DNA from: Membranipora membranacea
Taxonomy: Eukaryota > Bryozoa > Gymnolaemata > Cheilostomatida > Membraniporidae
Direction of reading: 5' to 3'
Length of the DNA: 64,000 nt
Assembly (NCBI GenBank): GCA_914767715.1
Contig: OU612067.1
Location: forward strand, 31,844,162-31,908,161
Every line of letters starts with the position of its first letter. The stretch's first letter is position 1. The notes beneath the pieces were generated by a model. The model did not search any database. It saw only the letters and a program-made list of their open reading frames with translations, and was not told the DNA's origin. Positions 8,136 through 46,367 of the stretch are shown piece by piece. The translations under genes were made by a program, and so were the position numbers.

Positions 8136-11100
8136 ATGCAGGCTATTCGCATCACCCTGTTCGGTAAGTTTACAACAATTTAAAAAGGTTTTCTGAAGCT
8201 GCTAATATCAGAGAATCCGAAAAACAATGATATACATGACATAGGGATAAAAATTATGTTTCATTTTAAAGAGTTTCAAGACTGGGAATATCGTGTAGAG
8301 ATGAAGCTGTCAAAAAGAGTTGTTCACTGTCTTGTTTTGCCGACGGGTGGGTCATTTTAATATTTGAAGACTAAGAAAGTATAGCAGCTCAGGTAATTTT
8401 GTGTATATGGTTGAAATAGAAATATATTGCAAAATAAATTGAACTTATATACAGTTTTCATGAATTGTTATGACTAGCATCTATGATTACTTGACTAGCC
8501 TTATGATTAATAACAGGATTAAAGATTAATTATTTTTTAAAGACTGAATAAGGGATAATAAAAGCTGAGTGAATTTTGTTGAGTGAGTGTCTTTTTCATA
8601 AAAATAAAGACAGCATTGTACATACAGAAAGTAACAAAATTTTGATGCCTATAGTTGATTGCCTCGTAATAGTTCTGACCCTTGAGGATAAACAAGGTGG
8701 GTAATTGTACCCGTCACTGCATGGATACCCTTAAACGCCTTTAACACTTCAATCAAACAAAATATATGCTTGGAAGCAACTGTGGTTAGTTTAAATCTGA
8801 GGCTCCTGCGGACAAAATCACAAATTCCTATAATTATACATCGCATAATTATGTGTTAATCTTTTACACTCCATAGAAGGCTAGCACCTTTTTTAAATAA
8901 TTTAAATCATTTGTACTGAGACAGTGGGATCATAGACACAAATGAAGTTTAGGTGCTAGTGTAGGTAATATTAACATGCAACCAAAAAGGTTGGGAGGGT
9001 ACCAGGCATGTATCTTTACCTCTCATGTCCCAAACTCTGATGCTCTGTTGGATGGTTTTGCCAACTGAGAAAAGAGTTCAATTCATTAAGTATATCATAA
9101 TGTGACCTCCATTCAATAAATATTGGGTACAAACAGCCTTGATCTTTCTCATAGCACTTGTTTTACCTGGCTTATCCATTTCTCTTGTAGTGTTATTTTT
9201 CTCAACGCTTCTACCATATGAAGCGCTGTGTCTAAATTGCGATAGACGCAGAGCATGCCAAGAGCTGCATGTTATCAGCTCGATTTCTACGACAGCGGGA
9301 TCCTTCAATTTGATGTTCCATTTCACTGATAGCAGGTACTCGTTGATAGCTGATCTCTTTCAGCGATGCCTTGCTACAACCTACTTAACAGGGTCTGTTC
9401 AGATAGACTGTTCAGATTTCACATCAACACTTTATTTCATACAAGTTTATCCTGGCAAACCAGCTGTTTTCAAATTAACAGTTCAACCTAGTAGTGTACC
9501 TGGTCGCCGTCCCGTTCCAACTACAACAGAAAGAGAACTGATTCAGATTAAAGAAGCACAACCAGTGGTCACTGAATATTCAAGCGTTAAAAGTCTGAAT
9601 AGCACAACAGTGCTGACCCCAAAGTGGTTGAAAATAACAAATACTGTAATAGAGGGGATTTGCACATTGATGCTAATTCTCATAGCAGCTCTAACCTGCA
9701 TTGGACGGTGAGTAGACTTATTCAGAATGAGTTCCACCATCCATTGACATCCTCGTTCAAGTTTTGCCACCGATAGATTCTAGTGATCTTTGTTTATCAT
9801 CCACCGGTGATTAATTTTGAAACCATGTAAGGAAAGCTTAAGCCCTAAAAGCCAAAAACATTCAATTTTTACGAATCAACAAGGTGCTAAAATCTCTTAC
9901 GGGAGCTCAGATATTAGCAGAGGACCAGAGTCAGTCAAATTTATCTGACCAAATTATATAGCTCAGAGCAGTTTTTTATGCTTGCTTGGAGTCAAACATC
10001 ATTAGTTTTAGTGTTGGGCGGGCTGGAATTCCCTAATTTTCTAAATTTGCTCCCAGCAAGACAGATATGACCCGTTTGGTAAGGAGATGAAGATTTGGCA
10101 GATTGCCCGGCTAGCAACTCTTCAGGCCTCTGTTTGGTAAACAAACCATCATTCTGTAGCTGAAAATTGCTAGGTTTAGCCATGAAATTGGCTATTTCAC
10201 AATGAACATCAAGATTTTTTACTGCATTCTTATACTACAAAAATAATGTCATTTTGCTTTGACAGGAGAGATGATCATGCATTCAGAGCTCTTTACATTA
10301 TTTTGAGCTTGTCAGTGACAGGGGTTTTCTGCTCCAATTGTATCTATAACATAGATGTACCTATCCATATGCCACACCTGGTGCTGAGCATAGCAGAGCA
10401 CTACCTCTGGTTTGTTGGCTGTCTGGCCAGTCTTACACTTAACACAAAATGCTGCAATGTGCGCAAACCGTCTGCACAGCCAAATGAGCAGCAGTACATA
10501 GTTCTGCGCAACGAAATCATAGAAAGTTTGGCTGACCAATATTTGATCATCTTTGTTATACCATTACTATACATGGCACCACTCCCCTTCATAGAGTGCA
10601 TGGCAATACATAGGTGAGTAATCCATCAATAGTTTTGAGTCAAAATATTTTGGCTTACTTGATTTTTAGTTATGGGCATTTCGCCACCTAATGACATAAG
10701 TTTACTGTGAATCATTTTAAATGGAATGATTGCAAGCGGGCTGTTGGAACAAGACGCGGTAGAATGGATCTGTTTGCTCTGCTGTCAAAAATTATTTGAA
10801 CAAGTTCTTAGGTAGCTGTAATTTTTTGTTTTGTGAAGGAGAGGTTTTTTATCTTCTGCTTTCCTGACAAGTGTTGCAGTTTGTTTCGGGTCACAATCCT
10901 TCTTCATGGCAGTTCTTCGGTTCCAGATTTCAGATCCCGTACCCCATATCAGAGGTTGCAGAACCTGCACCTATTGAATGTAAAAAACAACTTAAAAACG
11001 TAATTATTGGCACTGCCTGAACCCTCCTCTACCTGCCTCGACAAAGAGCAACATGAATGCATGAATGCTAAAAAACCTCAAAATTCACCTCATCAAACCC

Positions 11101-11700
11101 CAACAGTTGTGAGTGTGGCAGGAATTTATCCAAAGCCATAGTTTGTAAATTTACACATGTTCAACCCCACAAGATAAAATATTGAAAACTGTTTACTATT
11201 CCAGGTCAGATGAAAATATATGGTATTGGTTTATATTTAAAATGTGTGTTTGGATGGTTTTGTATTCCAGGTATCAGTCTTTTTATATGGTGCCCTTGCT
11301 GACACATATTTACATGGAAGGACACAACTCACTACATACTATACTGGAGTTTATCGCCCCTTTCTCTCTAATCACATTTATAAGTCTCATCACAACAGTC
11401 AGAAAGATACACAGAGGATCGACCTCCAGAGGTCTCATCACTAGCCTGGTACTACTGCTAGTCAGTATAACTCTGCCAATCCTATATGTGTCAATGATGA
11501 TGAGTAAATCCCCAGCTGGCAGTGTAGTTTGGGATATATTGATTCTTGCTCTCACAATATTGCTGACCGTCTCAGTTATTGCTTTATTCCTAGTTGATAT
11601 GACATGTTTTGACAACTTTATGCTCATAATTGATCGCAGGAGGTCTTCAAGGTATAGTTCAAGGTTAGCAGAAAGGATAGAAGAAGAATATGGTTTTTGA
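8136..11700 (+). CDS. Uncharacterised secretory-pathway multi-pass membrane protein, 480 aa
   Basis: Four exons join with consistent phases: 8136-8163 (ATG, donor gtaagt), 9137-9707, 10266-10613 and 11205-11700 (stop TGA). Residues 1-33 form a hydrophobic signal peptide or anchor. Residues about 35-175 form a luminal or extracellular domain with cysteines (CLNCDRRRAC near the start, later QRCLAT and QIDCSDF) and N-glycosylation candidates such as NST. Residues 178-450 contain seven or eight hydrophobic segments, for example GICTLMLILIAALTCIG, YIILSLSVTGVFC and SLVLLLVSITLPILYVSMM. The tail is short and rich in Arg, Ser and Glu. A luminal domain followed by about seven helices recalls GPCR-like or trafficking membrane proteins, but I do not recognise the family. 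An AATAAA signal lies at 12011. The gene model is strong; the function is unknown. Confidence 0.85.
8640..8850 (-). mobile_element. Possible LINE C-terminal remnant in intron 1
   Basis: Minus-strand translation gives LIEVLKAFKGIHAV, which resembles the LIEVFKIL-G segment near the C terminus of CR1-like LINE proteins. The match is short and lies inside the first intron of the membrane-protein gene. The call is tentative. Confidence 0.35.
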
Positions 11701-20179: not shown

Positions 20180-21660
20180 GCCTTGCTAGATCACTCGACG
20201 CCACACTCGCCTGCCGGAACGACAGAGCGAAACATTCCCAACCTGCACACAATCAAACCCCCTCCCACAGGCGCTCCGCCAGGCCACCCAAGGAACCAGA
20301 CTGCGTACATGTCTCCACTCCCATAAGGTACCTGCTGTACAGGATGACACCATGGCGCAACAGGGACCTTTCACCCCGCTTGTTTTTGGCATTTTTTGTT
20401 CGTAAATTATTTAATCTTGTGTTATAATCATGTCCTGATTTTAGAGAGTTGATAAACTCGTTCGAAAATGTTCTTAAAAATAGTTTTAAAGAGCAGTATT
20501 GCAATAACATTCTTAAAGGCATTATATTAAAAGTCTTAAAATGGGTTTAAACATGATCTCTGGTTTTTTTCTTTAAAATTACTCTTACACAAGCCTTTTG
20601 GAGGACTATTACTCGTTTTAGGTCATTTTCTGAAGCATGGCCCCAGAACTCTATTCCATAGAACAGGTGCGGGTAACAAAATGAGAAATATAATTCGATC
20701 ATTGTTTTTTTTGTCAAAATATGGACTTACTACACGCATCATTATTACAACCAAATTTAATTTTTTGCACAATTCATTTATGTGCGCCTCAAAAGTTATA
20801 TTTGAATCAAGGATAATACCTAGTTTCATTTTCCAGTTCAAGGGTTTTGGTAATCAGTTTGATAACATGATCATCGGCACTGAAAGCTTTTCTTGGGGAT
20901 TTAAAAATTACCTGAAAAGTTTTGGAATAGTTAAGTACTAGTTTGTTAGCTAAGCACCAATTTTCAACTCTGTTTAATTCTAGACTTAAAATAGCAAGGT
21001 CTGTACAAAATATATTAGTGTCGTCTGCATACAGTATATAATTTAATGCAGATGCTGCATTCAAGAGGTCATTTATTTAAATCAAAATATCAAAAATCAA
21101 AAATAAAAGTGGCCCCAGGTTTGAACCTTGGGGTACTCCTATGTTGATGTCCCGGTTCTGAGATACAGCAGTATTTACAACAACATATTGTTTACGGTTT
21201 TTGAGGTAATTTTCTCTGAGAGATGTGGCACAGGGTAAAAATCCATTAAATGGTAGCTTTTTGAATAAAAGTTCATGATTAATAGTATCAAACGCCCTTG
21301 AAAAATCTAAAGATATGCCAAATGTGCTGTTGCAGCGGTTAAAATTTTCATACAATTGTTCCATGAGCTTGTTTATAGCAGTGATGGTATTTCTGCCTCT
21401 TCTAAATCCAAACTGGCAGTCGGTTAAAATTGAGTTGGTCTCTAAAAACTCAATGATCTAGTTACTAAGAATTTTTTCAACAATTTTAGAAATAGTGCTT
21501 AAGATTGATATCGGGCGATAGTTATTAGTACTTGGTCTGTCTCCTTTTTTAAGAATGGATGTCACTTGTGCAGTTTTTAAGCTGTCCGGGAACACATAAT
21601 TTTCAATGACTAAATTTACACTATATGCCATGATAGTGGGAGGATAATCAGCTTGTTTTC
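20180..21660 (-). mobile_element. Degenerate Jockey/CR1-like LINE, RT to C terminus
   Basis: Read on the minus strand from 21660 down, the order is that of LINE ORF2: YRPISILSTISKIVEKIL near 21460-21540, CQFGFRRGRNTITAINKL near 21360-21420, ISLDFSRAFDTINHELLFKK near 21270-21320, IGVPQGSNLGPLLFL near 21090-21140, and the catalytic YILYADDTNIF near 21010-21045. Next come WCLANKLVLNYSKT, LGIILDSNITFEAHINEL and the terminal GHDYNTRLNN near 20410. Several stops and frame changes break the frame, so it cannot encode active enzyme. The 5' part, including an endonuclease, is not seen. Confidence 0.92.
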
Positions 21661-29808: not shown

Positions 29809-29816
29809 TATATAAA
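29809..29816 (+). promoter_or_regulatory. TATA box of the BRICHOS gene
   Basis: TATATAAA lies about 95 bases upstream of the start codon at 29909, which is at the end of exon 1. A TSS about 30 bases downstream gives a short 5' leader. Confidence 0.7.
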
Positions 29817-29908: not shown

Positions 29909-32655
29909 ATGGTAGGTAATGTACAATGTACATAGTGGGTGAATAGCTTTGGGCAGTATAGAAACAGAGCCAAGCAATCGTTTTCTAATCAGTAGATAGA
30001 ATTACAATATTTTTTTATTATTATTCACCATGTTATCTTGTAAAGTAACCACTTCTCATGTGCAATCGATTAGTTTGCCTGTGCCCTGCAACAAAATTAT
30101 ATCTCATAATGACTTTGCTAGGATGTGGATATGAAGAGTTCTGGTAGCAGGTGGAGTTCAATATCTCGTATTCTGGTGGTGACGACACTAGTACTTGTTC
30201 TGCTCTTAACTGTTGCCGTGTCAGCAGTAATCTATCTAGCTGTGGGACAGCAGAGCTCTGGTATTGCTCAACCGGAGTTTGTGAGGCATGGAATTCTTCA
30301 GTCTTATGATGAGGTGAGTTTTGTAGAAAACTTTAAAAAGAAAGCATTTTATTCTATTTGTGAAATTAATAATGTGAAACTTACTTTTTCTGTACTGAGA
30401 AACAGTTTCAATTCCATCTGCTTTTTAAGCTGGAATAATCTCTTAGATGCCCCCTGTAAAATTATCACCAGTTGAAGCACAGTATGATAAAAATACAGGA
30501 GTCAAAAGTTATCATACTTAAGCTTCTCTGACACTTGCATTCCCTTGAGATCGCTTTCTGCAGTAAGTTCTATCATTTGTTCAAGAGGAGCTTTTTAATG
30601 AAGTGCTTCTTTTTTATTTTGTTCTGATCAGTTTGGGGAGAAGGAAGAGGAGAGCCCAGAGGAGATCTCATACTTTAAGGAGGATAATGTCGTAATGTAT
30701 AGTAGAGATAACGGCTCCTTTGAGGCTCAAGACTTCAACAAGGTAACTGCTAATAATCAAGCTGACCTCATGCTTCAAAGCACTTAATGTGGGGGGAGAT
30801 CGTTCAAAGCAGGTTCAAGTTCTCAATGCAACAAATATTAACTAAGCCATGAACTAAAGCATATTGCTGATTGTGTTTGGATCAAGTTTTGTTCACCTTT
30901 GACTTTAGTGGCAGGAGAAAATATTCTGTTCACGCAATGTTGAGTAACAAGTGAGAATGAGGAATATCCTTTCCCAGCCAATATCAATAACAGAGATGCT
31001 GGATTATTGGATCAATTGATACTTATCTGAGAGTCATTATGTTGATCATCATCGCCATTACTGGCAAATGTTCAGCAGATGTGTACTGGGTACTCCAGAT
31101 TTGGGGTCCTAGTTTCAGATCCTGCCAGAACTGTTTTTGAACACTCCATTAGTGTTAACATTGTAGCTATATACAATATACAATTCCTTGTATTTGCTGT
31201 ATATTGTTAACTTGTTTTTTAAAACATCAATTCATTTTCTTGTTTGAAATAGTTTTGCCCTTGATTAACTCCTCACTTATTTGGCAGGAATCCCAATATA
31301 GAAGCACACAGCCTAGTTAAGCAATTGAATGCTTTCTTCTATTTCGCTTCTATGAAGATTTTGTTCTAATGAGACTCACGATAGACTCTAGAGGAAAATG
31401 TTGCAGGGAAAAAGATTGTCAATTTGCATAACCAAATCTATGACTAGCTAACATTTATTCAACCCCATAACATTATGTTAACTCCCATCTTAACTAGCAA
31501 ATTGTTTTGCTGGCCCAATCAAGCTTAACAAAACTCTAGCTTATATTTATTCTTCTTGGTTGAAGCTGATATGTTAACAATACACCTAACGCTCTAAGAA
31601 TGATATCCAACCCATACATTTATTTTGGCAGGGTATCTTATACAAGAAAGATGCAAACTCTGGTCACTGTTACCTTCTGCCTATATCTACCACACCTGAG
31701 AAGGGGCATGAGATAGAGGAGCTGCTCTCAGAAGACAATAGTGTAACCATGACTGGAGAAGCTGAGAGGTTTACAGTGTTACCAGGGGAGATAATGGACA
31801 CCAGTTTCATACCAAGTGTTGTGCAAGATGAATGTCAAAATGGCTACAGATGGTTGAAAAAGGCTGAAGATAAAGGTAAGGGACAGTAATTGTACTTAAC
31901 TTCCACCTAGCTGACTAGGACCATGGGCTGAATGATAACTTTGTAAGGGCTTGCCACTCTGGAAACATTAGAAAATGTAAGCAACTAATGAATGGTATCT
32001 TGCGAAAAAGGCTAGGTGTATCCACTATTAGGTTACTCACAGACAGGGAGACAGGGAGCAGTGAGATAAAGAAAAGCTGACAAAGTTAAGGCTTATGGGC
32101 ATGGCAAAGAGTTAGAATTATAGAAACATATTATTATTAAAACATTACGCAGATGAGTTGTGATGGCATGCAAACGATCTTTAGCTTGAAACCTTAATTT
32201 TCTTTGTGTGTTTTCCAGTAATTTTTGAATGACAGTGAACAATGTGTATTAGTCAACTTTGTTTACTTGCTGACAAAATTCACATGAATTTGCTAACCAA
32301 TGATTATTGAGAACAGCAGTCTGCTAGTAGAGCACATAAAGTTTCTTTGTCACCTCATACCATTATCTGTATGTTCTCTATAGTAAGTAATGTTTCATTA
32401 TACCATTGAACTTGACTTACTTTGACTTATGTTGCAGAACTCCTAGTGGAATATTGCGCCATTGAACAGTCAAATGAATTATTTTTTGCAGATGGAGCAA
32501 TCGTTAAAAGACAGGCAGTAACACCTAAAGTAACAATTGAAGTTGAGGTTGAGGTTGAGGTAGAGATCGTTGTAGTCGGCAATCGCTGCTATATCAACGC
32601 CCTCCGAGTCAGAGTATGTGTAACCGTCACTATAGAGAAGAGAAAAAGGAAGTAG
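29909..32655 (+). CDS. BRICHOS-domain precursor with cationic beta-strand C-terminal peptide, 255 aa
   Basis: Five exons join in phase: 29909-29911 (ATG, donor gtaggt), 30122-30313, 30632-30742, 31632-31875 and 32438-32655 (TAG). Residues about 17-41 are a signal-anchor helix (VVTTLVLVLLLTVAV), giving type II topology. A linker follows. The BRICHOS region runs roughly from residue 85 to 190, with YKKDANSGHCYLLP (Asp109, Cys115), DECQNGYRW (Cys170) and VEYC (Cys190). BRICHOS is an intramolecular chaperone for beta-prone C-terminal segments. A dibasic VKR site (206-208) precedes a 47-residue tail. That tail holds an acidic strand TIEVEVEVEVE (216-226) and a cationic strand with two cysteines (C234, C244) ending KRKRK. 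Annelid arenicin-type antimicrobial peptides are released from BRICHOS precursors with a similar layout, so an antimicrobial product is a reasonable guess, not shown. AATAAA is at 33138. Confidence 0.88.
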
Positions 32656-33137: not shown

Positions 33138-33143
33138 AATAAA
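33138..33143 (+). terminator. Polyadenylation signal of the BRICHOS gene
   Basis: AATAAA about 480 bases after the stop codon is the first match downstream that I found. Confidence 0.5.
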
Positions 33144-43476: not shown

Positions 43477-46367
43477 TCATATGAGTATATCTTGCCTCCC
43501 TTTGTTTTGTAGGCGACCAAATCTTTCACATGTACGGCAGTGATTGTTGCTTTCCTTTCTCTTTTTTGATCTCAGTTGATGAGTGACAACTATATTAAAT
43601 TGGGGCTGACAGCAGTCGCCTAAAGTCTGACTAGGGCTGACCATTGGTATCAGCGTGCTGTGTTCTTCATCGCCAGAAGATTCAATGGTCAGATCTACCA
43701 GAAGTGGCTGGTTAGTGTTATAGTGCAACTCTAGTCTAGGCTCGTCTGCTGTGAAATCCTATCCACAAAGATTAAAAAGATTGGCCGCATAAATCATTTG
43801 AAAAAGCTTGAAAAAGACGTTGTTTTGCTTTACTAACATATCTATCTATCAATGTGAGGGCGAGGAATAAATCATCACATTAACATGATCATGATTGATC
43901 CAAAATTTGCTTCCCGGTTTCTAAACACAGCTTAACTGATCTTGATTAAAATTATGCTAAACCATACAAACATACCTCCCATAGGAATGGTGATTTGGTT
44001 GCAGTATTATTTGGAGCATGGTCTCTAGTTATTCTGTGAATGTTGCCTCCCATATCTTTCAGTTGACTGATCTTATGATAAGCAGCTGCAGCAGATGTTG
44101 TAGCACACAAACTTTTATTTTCTCTTGAGTCAATTGTAATGCTCCTCTTGGCTCTAGATATTGGCTTTTGATCACAGCTACCATAATCCTGATCAATACT
44201 AGTGATCGACTTTGAGAGGGATGTCACACTAATCATTGACTTTGCCGGAGGAGAAGGGGATGATCTTGTCTTCTGTTCTTGTATAAATGAGTATGCTGTA
44301 AAGATAATAATAGATTCAGCATTTCATGAATAGCGATGACAATTGAATGTGACAGTAATAATGTTATTTATTAACTTATTATAACCTTTGAACTCATCAG
44401 AGTGCCTGCGATGTCGACATGATAACTGTTTCGTGATTATCAATCAAACACAAATAGTCGGGGTGACTCAAATTCTTGTGGCAACCAGACCAGTGAGAAT
44501 CATCATTAGAATATCAGGTACAGATTAATTATGTAGGTCCTTGAGAATATACGAACATCTGAAACGAGATCATTTGAAATCTTAGGATTCGGATGAGAAG
44601 TGAATTTTTTTTTTCACTGAACCAGTGGCACTAATTTACCAGACATCTGGCTATCATATGATTTAATAATTATACTCAATTGCATCAGTGTTTGGGTAAT
44701 TAAATCACCAAGTGCTGGGTGTATTTTATAGTCATAGAGCAATGTTATTCTAATTGCATAGCAAATCCCACATTTGAATGCTGAGAGTCTCAAGGGAGAT
44801 AATCAAAATAAAACTCACAGCTAGGCGCTGGTGTTGGAGATCGCCCAACACTGGGGTCAATTTTCAATCTGGCGACTTTAACATGACATGGTATCATCCG
44901 TCTCATCAGCCTCCGAGCTGCTCTATTCAGCCCAGTTCTTAGTCTTTTGAGGCGTTCCCGTTGATCAAGTCTTCCAAACACAACAGCTCGATTCAACTGG
45001 ATGTGGTCTGGTAATCTCATATAGTGTATGTTATTTAGATTCCAGCGATCATCACCTGAAATCAACACAGAAAACATTAATGTGATCATCTGTTTCAAAT
45101 ATCTGTTCTGCGGAATGTACATAACATTTGTTTTCTTTCAAATCTGAGACAAATAGTATGTCACCAGATATTATAATGAACAAAAAAACTATTCAAAAAA
45201 GTTCAAGAACCAACTACAACTGAGTATTACATATATTTCAAATTACACAACTCAATCAAGAATGAGACATGATTCATAAGATGAAACGAATAAGCCCTTT
45301 TGATGTGTCGATACTTAGTAGCTGTTGAATATTATCTTGAAAAAACGATCAAGAAGTATTTACAGGGTCCCAGTTTAGGGTGCTTTGTGACAAGAAATAA
45401 GCATCACCAGTCAAATAAGAGCTAGCGCAGTGACTCCAGAATTACACTATTACATGCTTTACTTACAGTAAGTGGTTTGAGATCTAAGACTGCGACTATC
45501 TGTGTGTGTCTGGACCCTATTACAATACTGATCATAGTCTCTGATGGTTGTACACTTCTGACATTGGCTCGACAGCAGAGACGTCATCTTAACACCCAGA
45601 GGTGAGCACAAGTCAAAATGAAGTAGGTCATCATTTGGATCATCTAGTAGCTCGGATTTGATCGATGCAATAGCGGTATCCAGAGTAACTTTTGAAGCCA
45701 AAGGTGACAATAACATAGTACTACCCGTCCTTGACGTTAACTGGAAGGTTTTATTTGGTGAGCCTACGCTCTTCTCAGAGTTTATGACAAGTTCAGGTTC
45801 AGATGCAACCTTGTCATTGGTGAAATGTTCAACTGATTTTCTGATAGGTGAAGAGTTTGTTTTTGATTTGACCTGTAGGCCCAAGCCTTCAAAAAAACTG
45901 TTTATTGAAGTAATTTCTGGTGTAGGTAGATGAACTGTACTGGGTCTGTCGATAACTTTGAAATAAGACTTCAGAGTGTTGACAGGGGTTTTGTTGACTT
46001 TGGATGGCATTCTTCTTATTTTGCTCTTCTGTTCGATCTGTGTTGATCTTTCAAGTAGTACTACAAGCTGGCTTCTAGTGTTGACTGAAAAACAAAGACG
46101 AATTAACATGGCATTAACATGGGATTGCCTAAGATATCAGCCAGATACTACCAAAACAAACTGTGATAAATTATGCTGGAATATAGTAGGCCAGAGTTCA
46201 AAGAACTTGGGCTATTTGAAGGGCTATGGGAGCAGTGCTTAATAATAAACAATAACATCAGCTTTCTAACACTCTGTAATGTTGTGTGCTCGGCTCTTGT
46301 ACTACCACTGGGTTCTTAGTACTTATCTGGTATGCTTACCATCAGAGAATGACTGCTTTACTCTCAT
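43477..46367 (-). CDS. Unrecognised SUMO-binding-motif protein, 494 aa, likely nuclear
   Basis: Five exons join in exact phase on the minus strand: 46340-46367 (ATG, MRVKQSFSD), 45467-46084, 44819-45055, 43976-44295 and 43477-43758 (TGA). The start is the first ATG before a good donor (gtaagc). The protein is polar and Ser/Thr-rich, with no membrane segment. Two segments resemble the hydrophobic half of PCNA-binding boxes, NTLKSYF (45-51) and INSFF (70-74), but both lack the leading Gln. Residues about 216-280 are strongly basic and helical-looking (LDQRERLKRLRTGLNRAARR). Residues 420-433, LLVDLTIESSGDEE, fit a SUMO-interacting motif: a hydrophobic core followed by acids. Basic LRSKKRK (457-463) may be a nuclear signal. 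I do not recognise the family; a chromatin or DNA-repair role is inference. Confidence 0.85.

What the first reader, a model, noticed from the sequence alone, without database searches (positions are those of the whole stretch)
29909..32655. BRICHOS precursor whose tail looks like a beta-hairpin peptide
The gene has a signal anchor, a BRICHOS region with its Asp and Cys residues, a VKR dibasic site, and a 47-residue tail ending in strands with C-x9-C and KRKRK. Annelid arenicin-type antimicrobial peptides come from BRICHOS precursors with the same order, but they use a cleavable signal peptide and the mature peptide is shorter. This may be an undescribed BRICHOS-derived peptide or a new membrane-anchored BRICHOS client.
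Basis: partly seen in the sequence, partly recalled or inferred. Interest (0 to 1): 0.85.

Follow-up and report, generated by a model that had tools for sequence, protein, structure and literature searches.

The report
Bryozoan BRICHOS precursors with ever-changing tails
A sea-mat (bryozoan) gene makes a membrane-anchored precursor in which a chaperone-like BRICHOS domain comes before a sticky beta-strand peptide behind a likely cutting site, and it belongs to a family of about forty genes and gene remnants that share the precursor but mostly carry different peptides, perhaps defence or surface-coating molecules.

Summary
The gene model at 29909-32655 (+) holds: five exons, a 237-residue membrane-anchored protein, BRICHOS (conserved Asp, two Cys), K-R, then a 47-residue tail predicted as a hairpin. 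The genome is a bryozoan, Membranipora membranacea (eight of eight contig sizes seen match the published table), not an annelid. The larger finding: this is one of about 41 BRICHOS loci there, some of them broken. The last exon, behind a convertase-like site, was assigned in 31 of 39 loci and carries 28 distinct tails: 19 genes with beta-strand tails, 12 with Cys-rich ones. Tail class follows the BRICHOS tree. Mean identity among 16 beta-tail genes is 57% for BRICHOS and 21% for tails. Only 7 of 19 beta tails are net cationic, so 'cationic antimicrobial peptide' is not general. The window tail has one apparent relative outside this genome (P0001, organism unknown) with the K-R site, two Cys and basic end kept. 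Membrane-anchored BRICHOS peptide precursors are already published from an annelid and spoon worms; my searches found none for Bryozoa. Likely function: chaperoned release of beta-aggregating effector peptides; release and a defence role are inferred, not shown.

The parts
29809..29815 (+). TATA-box-like element 100 bp upstream of the start codon
   Evidence: TATATAA found by pattern; consensus match only
29909..29911 (+). Exon 1 coding part: ATG followed at once by donor GTAGGT
   Evidence: same ATG|GTRRG upstream of exon 2 in 8 of 11 loci printed
30122..30313 (+). Exon 2: short cytosolic N-terminus, signal anchor and linker (residues 2-65)
   Evidence: similar exon in 16 of 41 loci at E <= 0.001, 22 at E <= 1, this one included; many fetched loci end 1500 bases upstream of the match
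30170..30244 (+). Hydrophobic anchor helix, residues 18-42
   Evidence: Read by eye from the translation; similar stretch in paralogues; no transmembrane predictor was run
30632..30742 (+). Exon 3: acidic linker and start of BRICHOS, with the conserved Asp (residue 99)
   Evidence: similar exon in 29 of 41 loci at E <= 0.001, 35 at E <= 1
31632..31875 (+). Exon 4: BRICHOS core with Cys115 and Cys170 (residues 103-183)
32492..32655 (+). Exon 5: DGAIVKR + 47-residue tail + stop
   Evidence: only copy found in the genome, next match E 2.7
32506..32511 (+). Lys-Arg convertase-like site (residues 189-190)
   Evidence: kept in P0001 and at a similar place in 29 further assigned tail exons, R-x-x-R in L036
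32512..32652 (+). 47-residue tail: (Val-Glu)n strand, turn, C-x9-C, Arg/Val strand, EKRKRK end; predicted hairpin
   Evidence: (strands 13-29 and 32-49 of the 54-residue exon product, best model mean pLDDT 81.6, worst of five 43.0)
32438..32491 (+). Optional in-frame extension of exon 5 if the upstream acceptor is used (255-residue form)
   Evidence: poorly matched in P0001; judged less likely
33138..33143 (+). AATAAA polyadenylation signal
   Evidence: consensus match only

Best explanation
This is one gene of a large bryozoan family of membrane-anchored (type II) proproteins. The anchor holds the precursor in the secretory membranes (inferred from sequence). The BRICHOS domain acts in cis as a chaperone that keeps a very beta-prone C-terminal peptide from aggregating (inferred from established BRICHOS biology). 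A furin-like convertase cuts after Lys-Arg (site shown, cutting inferred). The freed peptide then folds as a beta-hairpin or assembles with itself outside the cell, most likely as a host-defence or surface-protecting effector (inferred). Shown here by sequence: the architecture, the family, the recurring site, the conserved BRICHOS and the faster-changing tail. My estimate is about 0.85 for a convertase-processed BRICHOS proprotein and about 0.45 for a defence role.
For: BRICHOS assignment. 43 BRICHOS-exon places in the genome, about 41 loci after merging two split ones. Anchor-type exon beside 16 and linker exon beside 29 of 41 loci at E <= 0.001. A phase-1 terminal exon with K/R-R (R-x-x-R once) was assigned in 31 of 39 loci examined. 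A scan with fixed rules, set after I had seen the tails, found such exons in 31 of 39 loci, against a mean of 6.1 and maximum of 13 in 200 Markov shuffles, 7 of 39 on the reverse strand and 10 of 39 upstream. Beta tails are rich in Val/Ile/Thr: 0.54 (19 tails) against 0.18 in BRICHOS exons of 16 of those genes, with mixed synonymous codons, so more than a DNA repeat is kept. Tail class follows the BRICHOS tree: Cys-rich genes on one side of one branch, 0 of 500 shuffles as low. Tails diverge more: 57% versus 21% mean identity over 120 pairs. P0001 keeps DGAIVKRQ, two Cys, VCVTVT and a basic end.
Against: No transcript, peptide or activity data were available. The window protein's Pfam score stays below the curated cut-off, and the family search of the genome with PF04089 found nothing at E <= 0.001. 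BLASTP with composition correction reported only a 10-residue match elsewhere in P0001, E 0.039; in the database search P0001 had E 0.99, and two further protein searches found nothing. All dN/dS values obtained are below 1 in both exons, and in L040/L042 the BRICHOS exon has the higher ratio, so positive selection is not shown. Seven of 39 loci gave no acceptable tail exon, the closest BRICHOS paralogue L002 among them. Control scans are not empty (6-10 of 39 by chance), so a few assigned tails could be wrong.
Confidence: 0.62

Rival explanations
1. Classical cationic beta-hairpin antimicrobial peptide of the arenicin/UuBRI type: the freed 47-mer inserts into bacterial membranes through its Arg/Val strand and KRKRK end.
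For: Same precursor order, including a membrane anchor, in UuBRI-21 and HfBRI-25; basic end kept in P0001; net charge +3 here and +8 in L010/L011.
Against: Five Glu sit in the first predicted strand, six acidic residues in the whole tail; the predicted hairpin puts both Cys in one strand; only 7 of 19 beta tails and 6 of 12 Cys-rich tails are net positive.
Confidence: 0.35
2. The tails are building blocks of functional amyloid or beta-fibres (cuticle, adhesive, mucus or microbe-trapping nets); BRICHOS keeps them soluble until release.
For: Tails such as VVPIIIVIVIVVTTT, GTTVIIIIVKV, GWEISITITIPF and QTVTTTTTTTITVSTTTTISKQ are near-pure strand-type sequences with little charge; BRICHOS is described as specific for beta-prone regions, with a groove that binds the mature peptide.
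Against: No assembly data; structural proteins do not usually diversify this fast between copies (own knowledge); the Cys-rich part of the family does not fit.
Confidence: 0.3
3. The tail stays attached: a membrane BRICHOS protein of ITM2 or tenomodulin kind in which K-R is not cut.
For: Type II signal-anchor architecture is described for BRICHOS proteins; no proof of cleavage here.
Against: K/R-R lies a short, similar distance after the last splice junction in 30 of 31 assigned tail exons although what follows differs (the distance was part of how exons were picked); fast tail change is unlike a housekeeping membrane protein.
Confidence: 0.15
4. The tails are signalling peptides (neuropeptide-like or allorecognition cues).
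For: Convertase-like site and high diversity.
Against: Of 31 tails only L007 ends in Gly and none in Gly plus basic residues, so there is little sign of amidation; poly-Ile/Thr strands are unlike known peptide ligands (own knowledge).
Confidence: 0.07

Closest known systems
Membrane-anchored BRICHOS antimicrobial precursors of annelids and spoon worms (HfBRI-20/-23/-25/-28/-54; UuBRI-21, UcBRI-21, BvBRI-21)
   Same: Short N-terminus, transmembrane helix, BRICHOS, Lys/Arg-Arg type site, C-terminal peptide; in Heteromastus 13 peptides of nine structural families, beta-hairpin and Cys-rich ones included
   Different: Bryozoan host; about 41 loci; 12 of 19 beta tails not cationic. Similarity to their tails could not be tested, because the text held does not print the sequences
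Arenicin, alvinellacin, capitellacin, nicomicin (signal-peptide BRICHOS precursors)
   Same: Anionic pro-region with BRICHOS, dibasic site, C-terminal peptide
   Different: Anchor instead of signal peptide (inferred by eye); longer tail; in Alvinella the antimicrobial peptide lacks variation while BRICHOS varies, the reverse of what is seen here
ITM2B/BRI2 family
   Same: N-terminal membrane anchor, BRICHOS, convertase-released C-terminal peptide; best solved-structure match of the family profile
   Different: BRI2 releases a 23-residue peptide; here many diverged genes carry mostly different tails
proSP-C
   Same: BRICHOS groove binds and stabilises a mature peptide; that this peptide is Val-rich is recalled
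   Different: In proSP-C the client lies N-terminal to BRICHOS

Membership tests
BRICHOS superfamily | One Asp and two Cys strictly conserved in the domain | tested here: met
   Asp99 in 23 of 23 rows covering it; Cys115 and Cys170 in 25 of 25 (25 of about 41 loci were aligned, broken ones left out). The feature is stated in a paper passage
BRICHOS superfamily | Profile match above the curated cut-off | tested here: not met
   19-20 bits against a cut-off of 25 for the window protein; low BRICHOS sequence conservation is reported in polychaetes too. I file it here on the family-level evidence, with this failure stated
BRICHOS superfamily | Profile-level similarity to a solved BRICHOS domain | tested here: met
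   Best match 8rnu, ITM2B, E 0.016, aligned through its Asp and first Cys only; modest on its own
BRICHOS superfamily | Hydrophobic N-terminal region, linker, BRICHOS, C-terminal beta-prone region | tested here: met
BRICHOS superfamily | BRICHOS fold | not tested
BRICHOS-related antimicrobial peptides | Dibasic site between BRICHOS and tail | tested here: met
   Window K189-R190; K/R-R in 30 and R-x-x-R in 1 of 31 assigned tail exons, out of 39 loci examined
BRICHOS-related antimicrobial peptides | Cationic mature peptide | tested here: inconclusive
   Window tail +3 with six acidic residues; family range -6 to +8
BRICHOS-related antimicrobial peptides | Demonstrated antimicrobial activity | not testable with these tools
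   Needs peptide synthesis
Arenicin-type beta-hairpin | Cross-strand disulphide closing the hairpin | tested here: not met
   Model puts both Cys in strand 32-49 of exon 5 (two-sequence alignment, so weak); spacing changes to C-x10-C in P0001
Arenicin-type beta-hairpin | Cleavable signal peptide | tested here: inconclusive
   No SignalP-like tool was on hand; the hydrophobic stretch lies behind a 17-residue basic N-terminus and reads as an anchor

The most novel reading that the evidence does not exclude
Bryozoans have evolved a large repertoire system in which one conserved, membrane-tethered BRICHOS chaperone cassette delivers dozens of rapidly changing beta-aggregating or Cys-rich peptides. 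The non-cationic members would work by controlled self-assembly (amyloid-like nets or coats on the colony surface) and not by classical cationic membrane lysis: a chaperone-gated functional-amyloid immune or antifouling repertoire outside annelids.
Probability: 0.22. Interest if true: 0.85.

Novelty: new variant of a known kind. Interest (0 to 1): 0.62.

Why it matters
BRICHOS is studied as the body's own anti-amyloid chaperone. A genome with about forty BRICHOS loci, most of them with their own client attached, is a natural experiment on which peptides BRICHOS can hold and how chaperone and client change together. It extends BRICHOS-derived peptides to a phylum for which my searches found none reported, and gives 28 distinct candidate peptides that can be made and tested for killing, fibre formation and chaperone dependence.

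Tried and rejected
Rejected: annelid origin (contig sizes match Membranipora); the 255-residue reading with acceptor 32438; exon-5 diversity as mere microsatellite DNA (mixed synonymous codons; but 4-mer diversity is lower than in exon 4 for some tails such as L014, L020, L007 and L010, and about equal for L001, L003, L004 and L009, 11 compared); proof of positive selection (not obtained).

Led nowhere: PF04089 against the genome at default threshold, 0 matches, not even this locus, and no control genome rang either; viral and bacterial/archaeal contig scans; plasmid tblastn; PDB search with the single protein (one unrelated weak hit) and with the tail (one unrelated weak hit); exon 4 and tail-alignment protein searches; tRNA and Rfam scans of the window; extending L002 downstream for a K-R tail. 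A genome search for mitochondrial COX1 to place the animal did not complete and was dropped once contig sizes had named it.

Rows left out of counts: L026 (same gene as L030), L035 (its best hit repeats L015; its second locus, split in two pieces, was not analysed) and L037 (no exon-4 match in my own blast) were dropped before the 39-locus counts. In one search two of the 31 positive loci (L002, L028) are positive through an ORF that is not the one I assign, and L036 (R-x-x-R) is missed by that rule. The alignment and the tree used 25 of about 41 loci, chosen to cover the clusters. Tails of L018, L022 and L030, whose exon 4 is broken, are in the tail counts but not in the exon-4 comparisons.

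Full report
What was checked. Splicing five exons gives an open 237-residue protein: M | exon 2 with a basic N-terminus and hydrophobic stretch 18-42 | acidic linker | BRICHOS | DGAIVKR | 47-residue tail ending EKRKRK. Pfam gives BRICHOS 19 bits, E 0.0017, under the cut-off of 25. The exon-5 acceptor at 32492 is preferred over 32438, because five paralogues and P0001 begin their last exon with D-G-x-x-x-K-R and the extra 18 residues have little counterpart in P0001. The odd one-codon first exon recurs as ATG|GTRRG upstream of exon 2 in 8 of 11 loci printed before that script stopped. A TATA-like box and AATAAA flank the gene. No transcript was seen.

Which animal. The window lies on contig C3 of an unnamed assembly of 339,339,785 bases in 18 contigs. 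The eight contig lengths seen (C2 39.53, C3 35.04, C4 35.00, C6 29.39, C8 27.17, C9 25.74, C10 24.42, C11 23.37 Mb) equal the chromosome sizes of Membranipora membranacea tzMemMemb1.1 in Table 2 of PMC10290214 (passages read), eight of eight; the published span is 339.4 Mb in 21 scaffolds. The host is therefore a bryozoan.

The family. Searching the genome with the BRICHOS exon found 43 places with E from 3e-51 to 0.03 (such counts are lower bounds). After merging two split genes these are about 41 loci on eight chromosomes, many of them in clusters. At E <= 0.001 the anchor exon is recognisable beside 16 and the linker exon beside 29 of 41 loci; many fetched loci stop 1500 bases from the match. 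Where I assigned the donor after exon 4 (34 loci, by eye among candidates) it is in phase 1. An alignment of 25 loci has six invariant columns, among them both Cys, and the BRICHOS Asp is present in 23 of 23 rows that reach it. 17 of 25 match PF04089 at E <= 0.1, best 0.00017; four unrelated families match 1-4 members. The profile's best hit among solved structures is ITM2B BRICHOS, E 0.016, through the Asp and first Cys; the second is unrelated at E 2. Some loci are broken: stops inside L018, L022 and L026/L030, and a second C3 locus in L035 split in pieces.

The tails. Downstream of the BRICHOS exon a phase-1 exon with K/R-R (R-x-x-R in L036) and a stop was assigned in 31 of 39 loci examined. 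L034 carries K-R and a Cys-rich tail in the BRICHOS exon itself. Seven loci gave none (L002, L012, L015, L021, L023, L029, L033). A scan with fixed rules, set after I had seen the tails, finds such exons in 31 of 39 loci, against 6.1 on average and 13 at most in 200 Markov shuffles, 7 of 39 on the reverse strand and 10 of 39 upstream; two of those 31 are not the exon I assign. Nineteen tails are beta-type (0-2 Cys, 11-47 residues), twelve are Cys-rich (4, 6 or 8 Cys); 28 of the 31 are distinct (16 beta, 12 Cys-rich). Val+Ile+Thr make up 0.54 of beta tails against 0.18 of the BRICHOS exons of 16 of those genes. Net charge of beta tails runs from -5 to +8: positive in 7, zero in 5, negative in 7 of 19. 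Ile and Thr runs use mixed codons, which suggests that the amino-acid pattern is kept.

Evolution. Among 16 beta-type genes mean identity is 57% in the BRICHOS exon and 21% in the mature tail over 120 pairs, with the tail as similar or more similar in 3 pairs; among 12 Cys-rich genes 35% and 22% over 66 pairs, 4 such pairs. Of 15 pairs run for dN/dS, both exons gave a ratio in 8, and the tail exon was higher in 7: L024/L025 0.48 against 0.02, L031/L032 0.62 against 0.38, L005/L006 0.77 against 0.35, L003/L010 0.95 against 0.26, L003/L016 0.36 against 0.28, L014/L020 0.42 against 0.37, L040/L041 0.31 against 0.28; L040/L042 goes the other way, 0.44 against 0.61 (pairs overlap, and exon 5 includes the residues before K-R). 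No value exceeds 1, so faster change is indicated and positive selection is not shown. Recent pairs L010/L011 and L004/L008 have identical tails. On a maximum-likelihood tree of 25 genes the Cys-rich ones lie on one side of one branch (support 94/91; 0 of 500 label shuffles as low); the beta label needs three changes only because L002 and L012, whose tails are unknown, lie inside. BRICHOS type and tail class thus go together. This contrasts with Alvinella, where the peptide lacks variation and BRICHOS varies (PMC5431198, passages).

The window tail. Its exon is found only once in this genome (next match E 2.7). One protein of an unnamed source (P0001, ENA) contains a matching exon: DGAIVKRQ identical, a beta strand in which four of five Glu are Thr, two Cys at C-x10-C, VCVTVT and EKKKKK. 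Its best match in this whole genome is the window exon, E 2.4e-6, the next 0.01, so it is probably from another organism. An unmasked local alignment scores 118 against 30.8 +/- 5.3 in 5000 shuffles, maximum 57; the Thr-rich tails L014, L020 and L022 score 59. Against this, the database E-value was only 0.99, and composition-corrected BLASTP reported only a ten-residue match elsewhere in P0001. AlphaFold2 on the two sequences gives a two-stranded hairpin, strands 13-29 and 32-49, best model mean pLDDT 81.6, pTM 0.44, worst of five models 43.0. Both Cys lie in the second strand, so the model offers no cross-strand disulphide.

How it probably works. Shown by sequence: architecture, site, family, tail divergence. 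Inferred from established BRICHOS biology (PMC9714404, passages and section 2.1; PMC5431198, passages): the domain binds the beta-prone tail until a convertase releases it. Inferred by analogy with annelids: a defence role. The many uncharged, strand-like sister tails make self-assembly a serious alternative to membrane lysis.

Known or new. Membrane-anchored BRICHOS peptide precursors are published for Heteromastus filiformis (PMC10745061: abstract, introduction, section 2.1, figure legends and tables read) and for Urechis and Bonellia (PMC9410094: abstract, section 2.1, legends); nicomicin was seen in passages (PMC6265681). A search for BRICHOS with bryozoa gave one paper, a pharmacology review with one mention of each (search listing only). 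The listings (each capped) showed no bryozoan BRICHOS study; one search was poorly aimed, since none of its 15 listed papers mentions BRICHOS. The library misses most subscription journals. I rate this a new variant of a known kind: known architecture, new phylum as far as I could search, and an unusually large and divergent tail repertoire.

Mended: charge counts, exon counts, the amidation statement, dN/dS pair counts, the ITM2B match description and the status of broken loci.

Noticed in passing
window 21080-21457 (-): Fragment of a reverse transcriptase (Pfam RVT_1, E 2.1e-14), a retroelement remnant.
   Followed up: no
window 9106-11697 (+): Three open stretches that read like exons of a multi-pass membrane protein; no Pfam match at E <= 0.1.
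   Followed up: no
window 45462-46136 (-): Open frame of 225 residues without Pfam match at E <= 0.1.
   Followed up: no
L038 and L034 (C11, 10.07-10.26 Mb): BRICHOS genes with collagen-like GQPG repeats around Cys- or His/Cys-rich tails; L038 has a run of His-Cys pairs that looks metal-binding.
   Followed up: partly
L002 (C10:13213871): Closest BRICHOS relative (72% identity) keeps EGAIVK after a splice site but then Ser instead of Arg and an unrelated hydrophobic stretch; tail replaced, gene decaying, or tail exon not found.
   Followed up: partly
L018, L022, L026/L030, second locus in L035: BRICHOS exons with stops or split matches, likely decayed copies beside intact ones.
   Followed up: no
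L010/L011 (C3:24.37 and 24.39 Mb) and L004/L008 (C11:4.77 and 4.83 Mb): Nearly identical duplicates with identical tails; L010/L011 has the most cationic tail, +8.
   Followed up: partly
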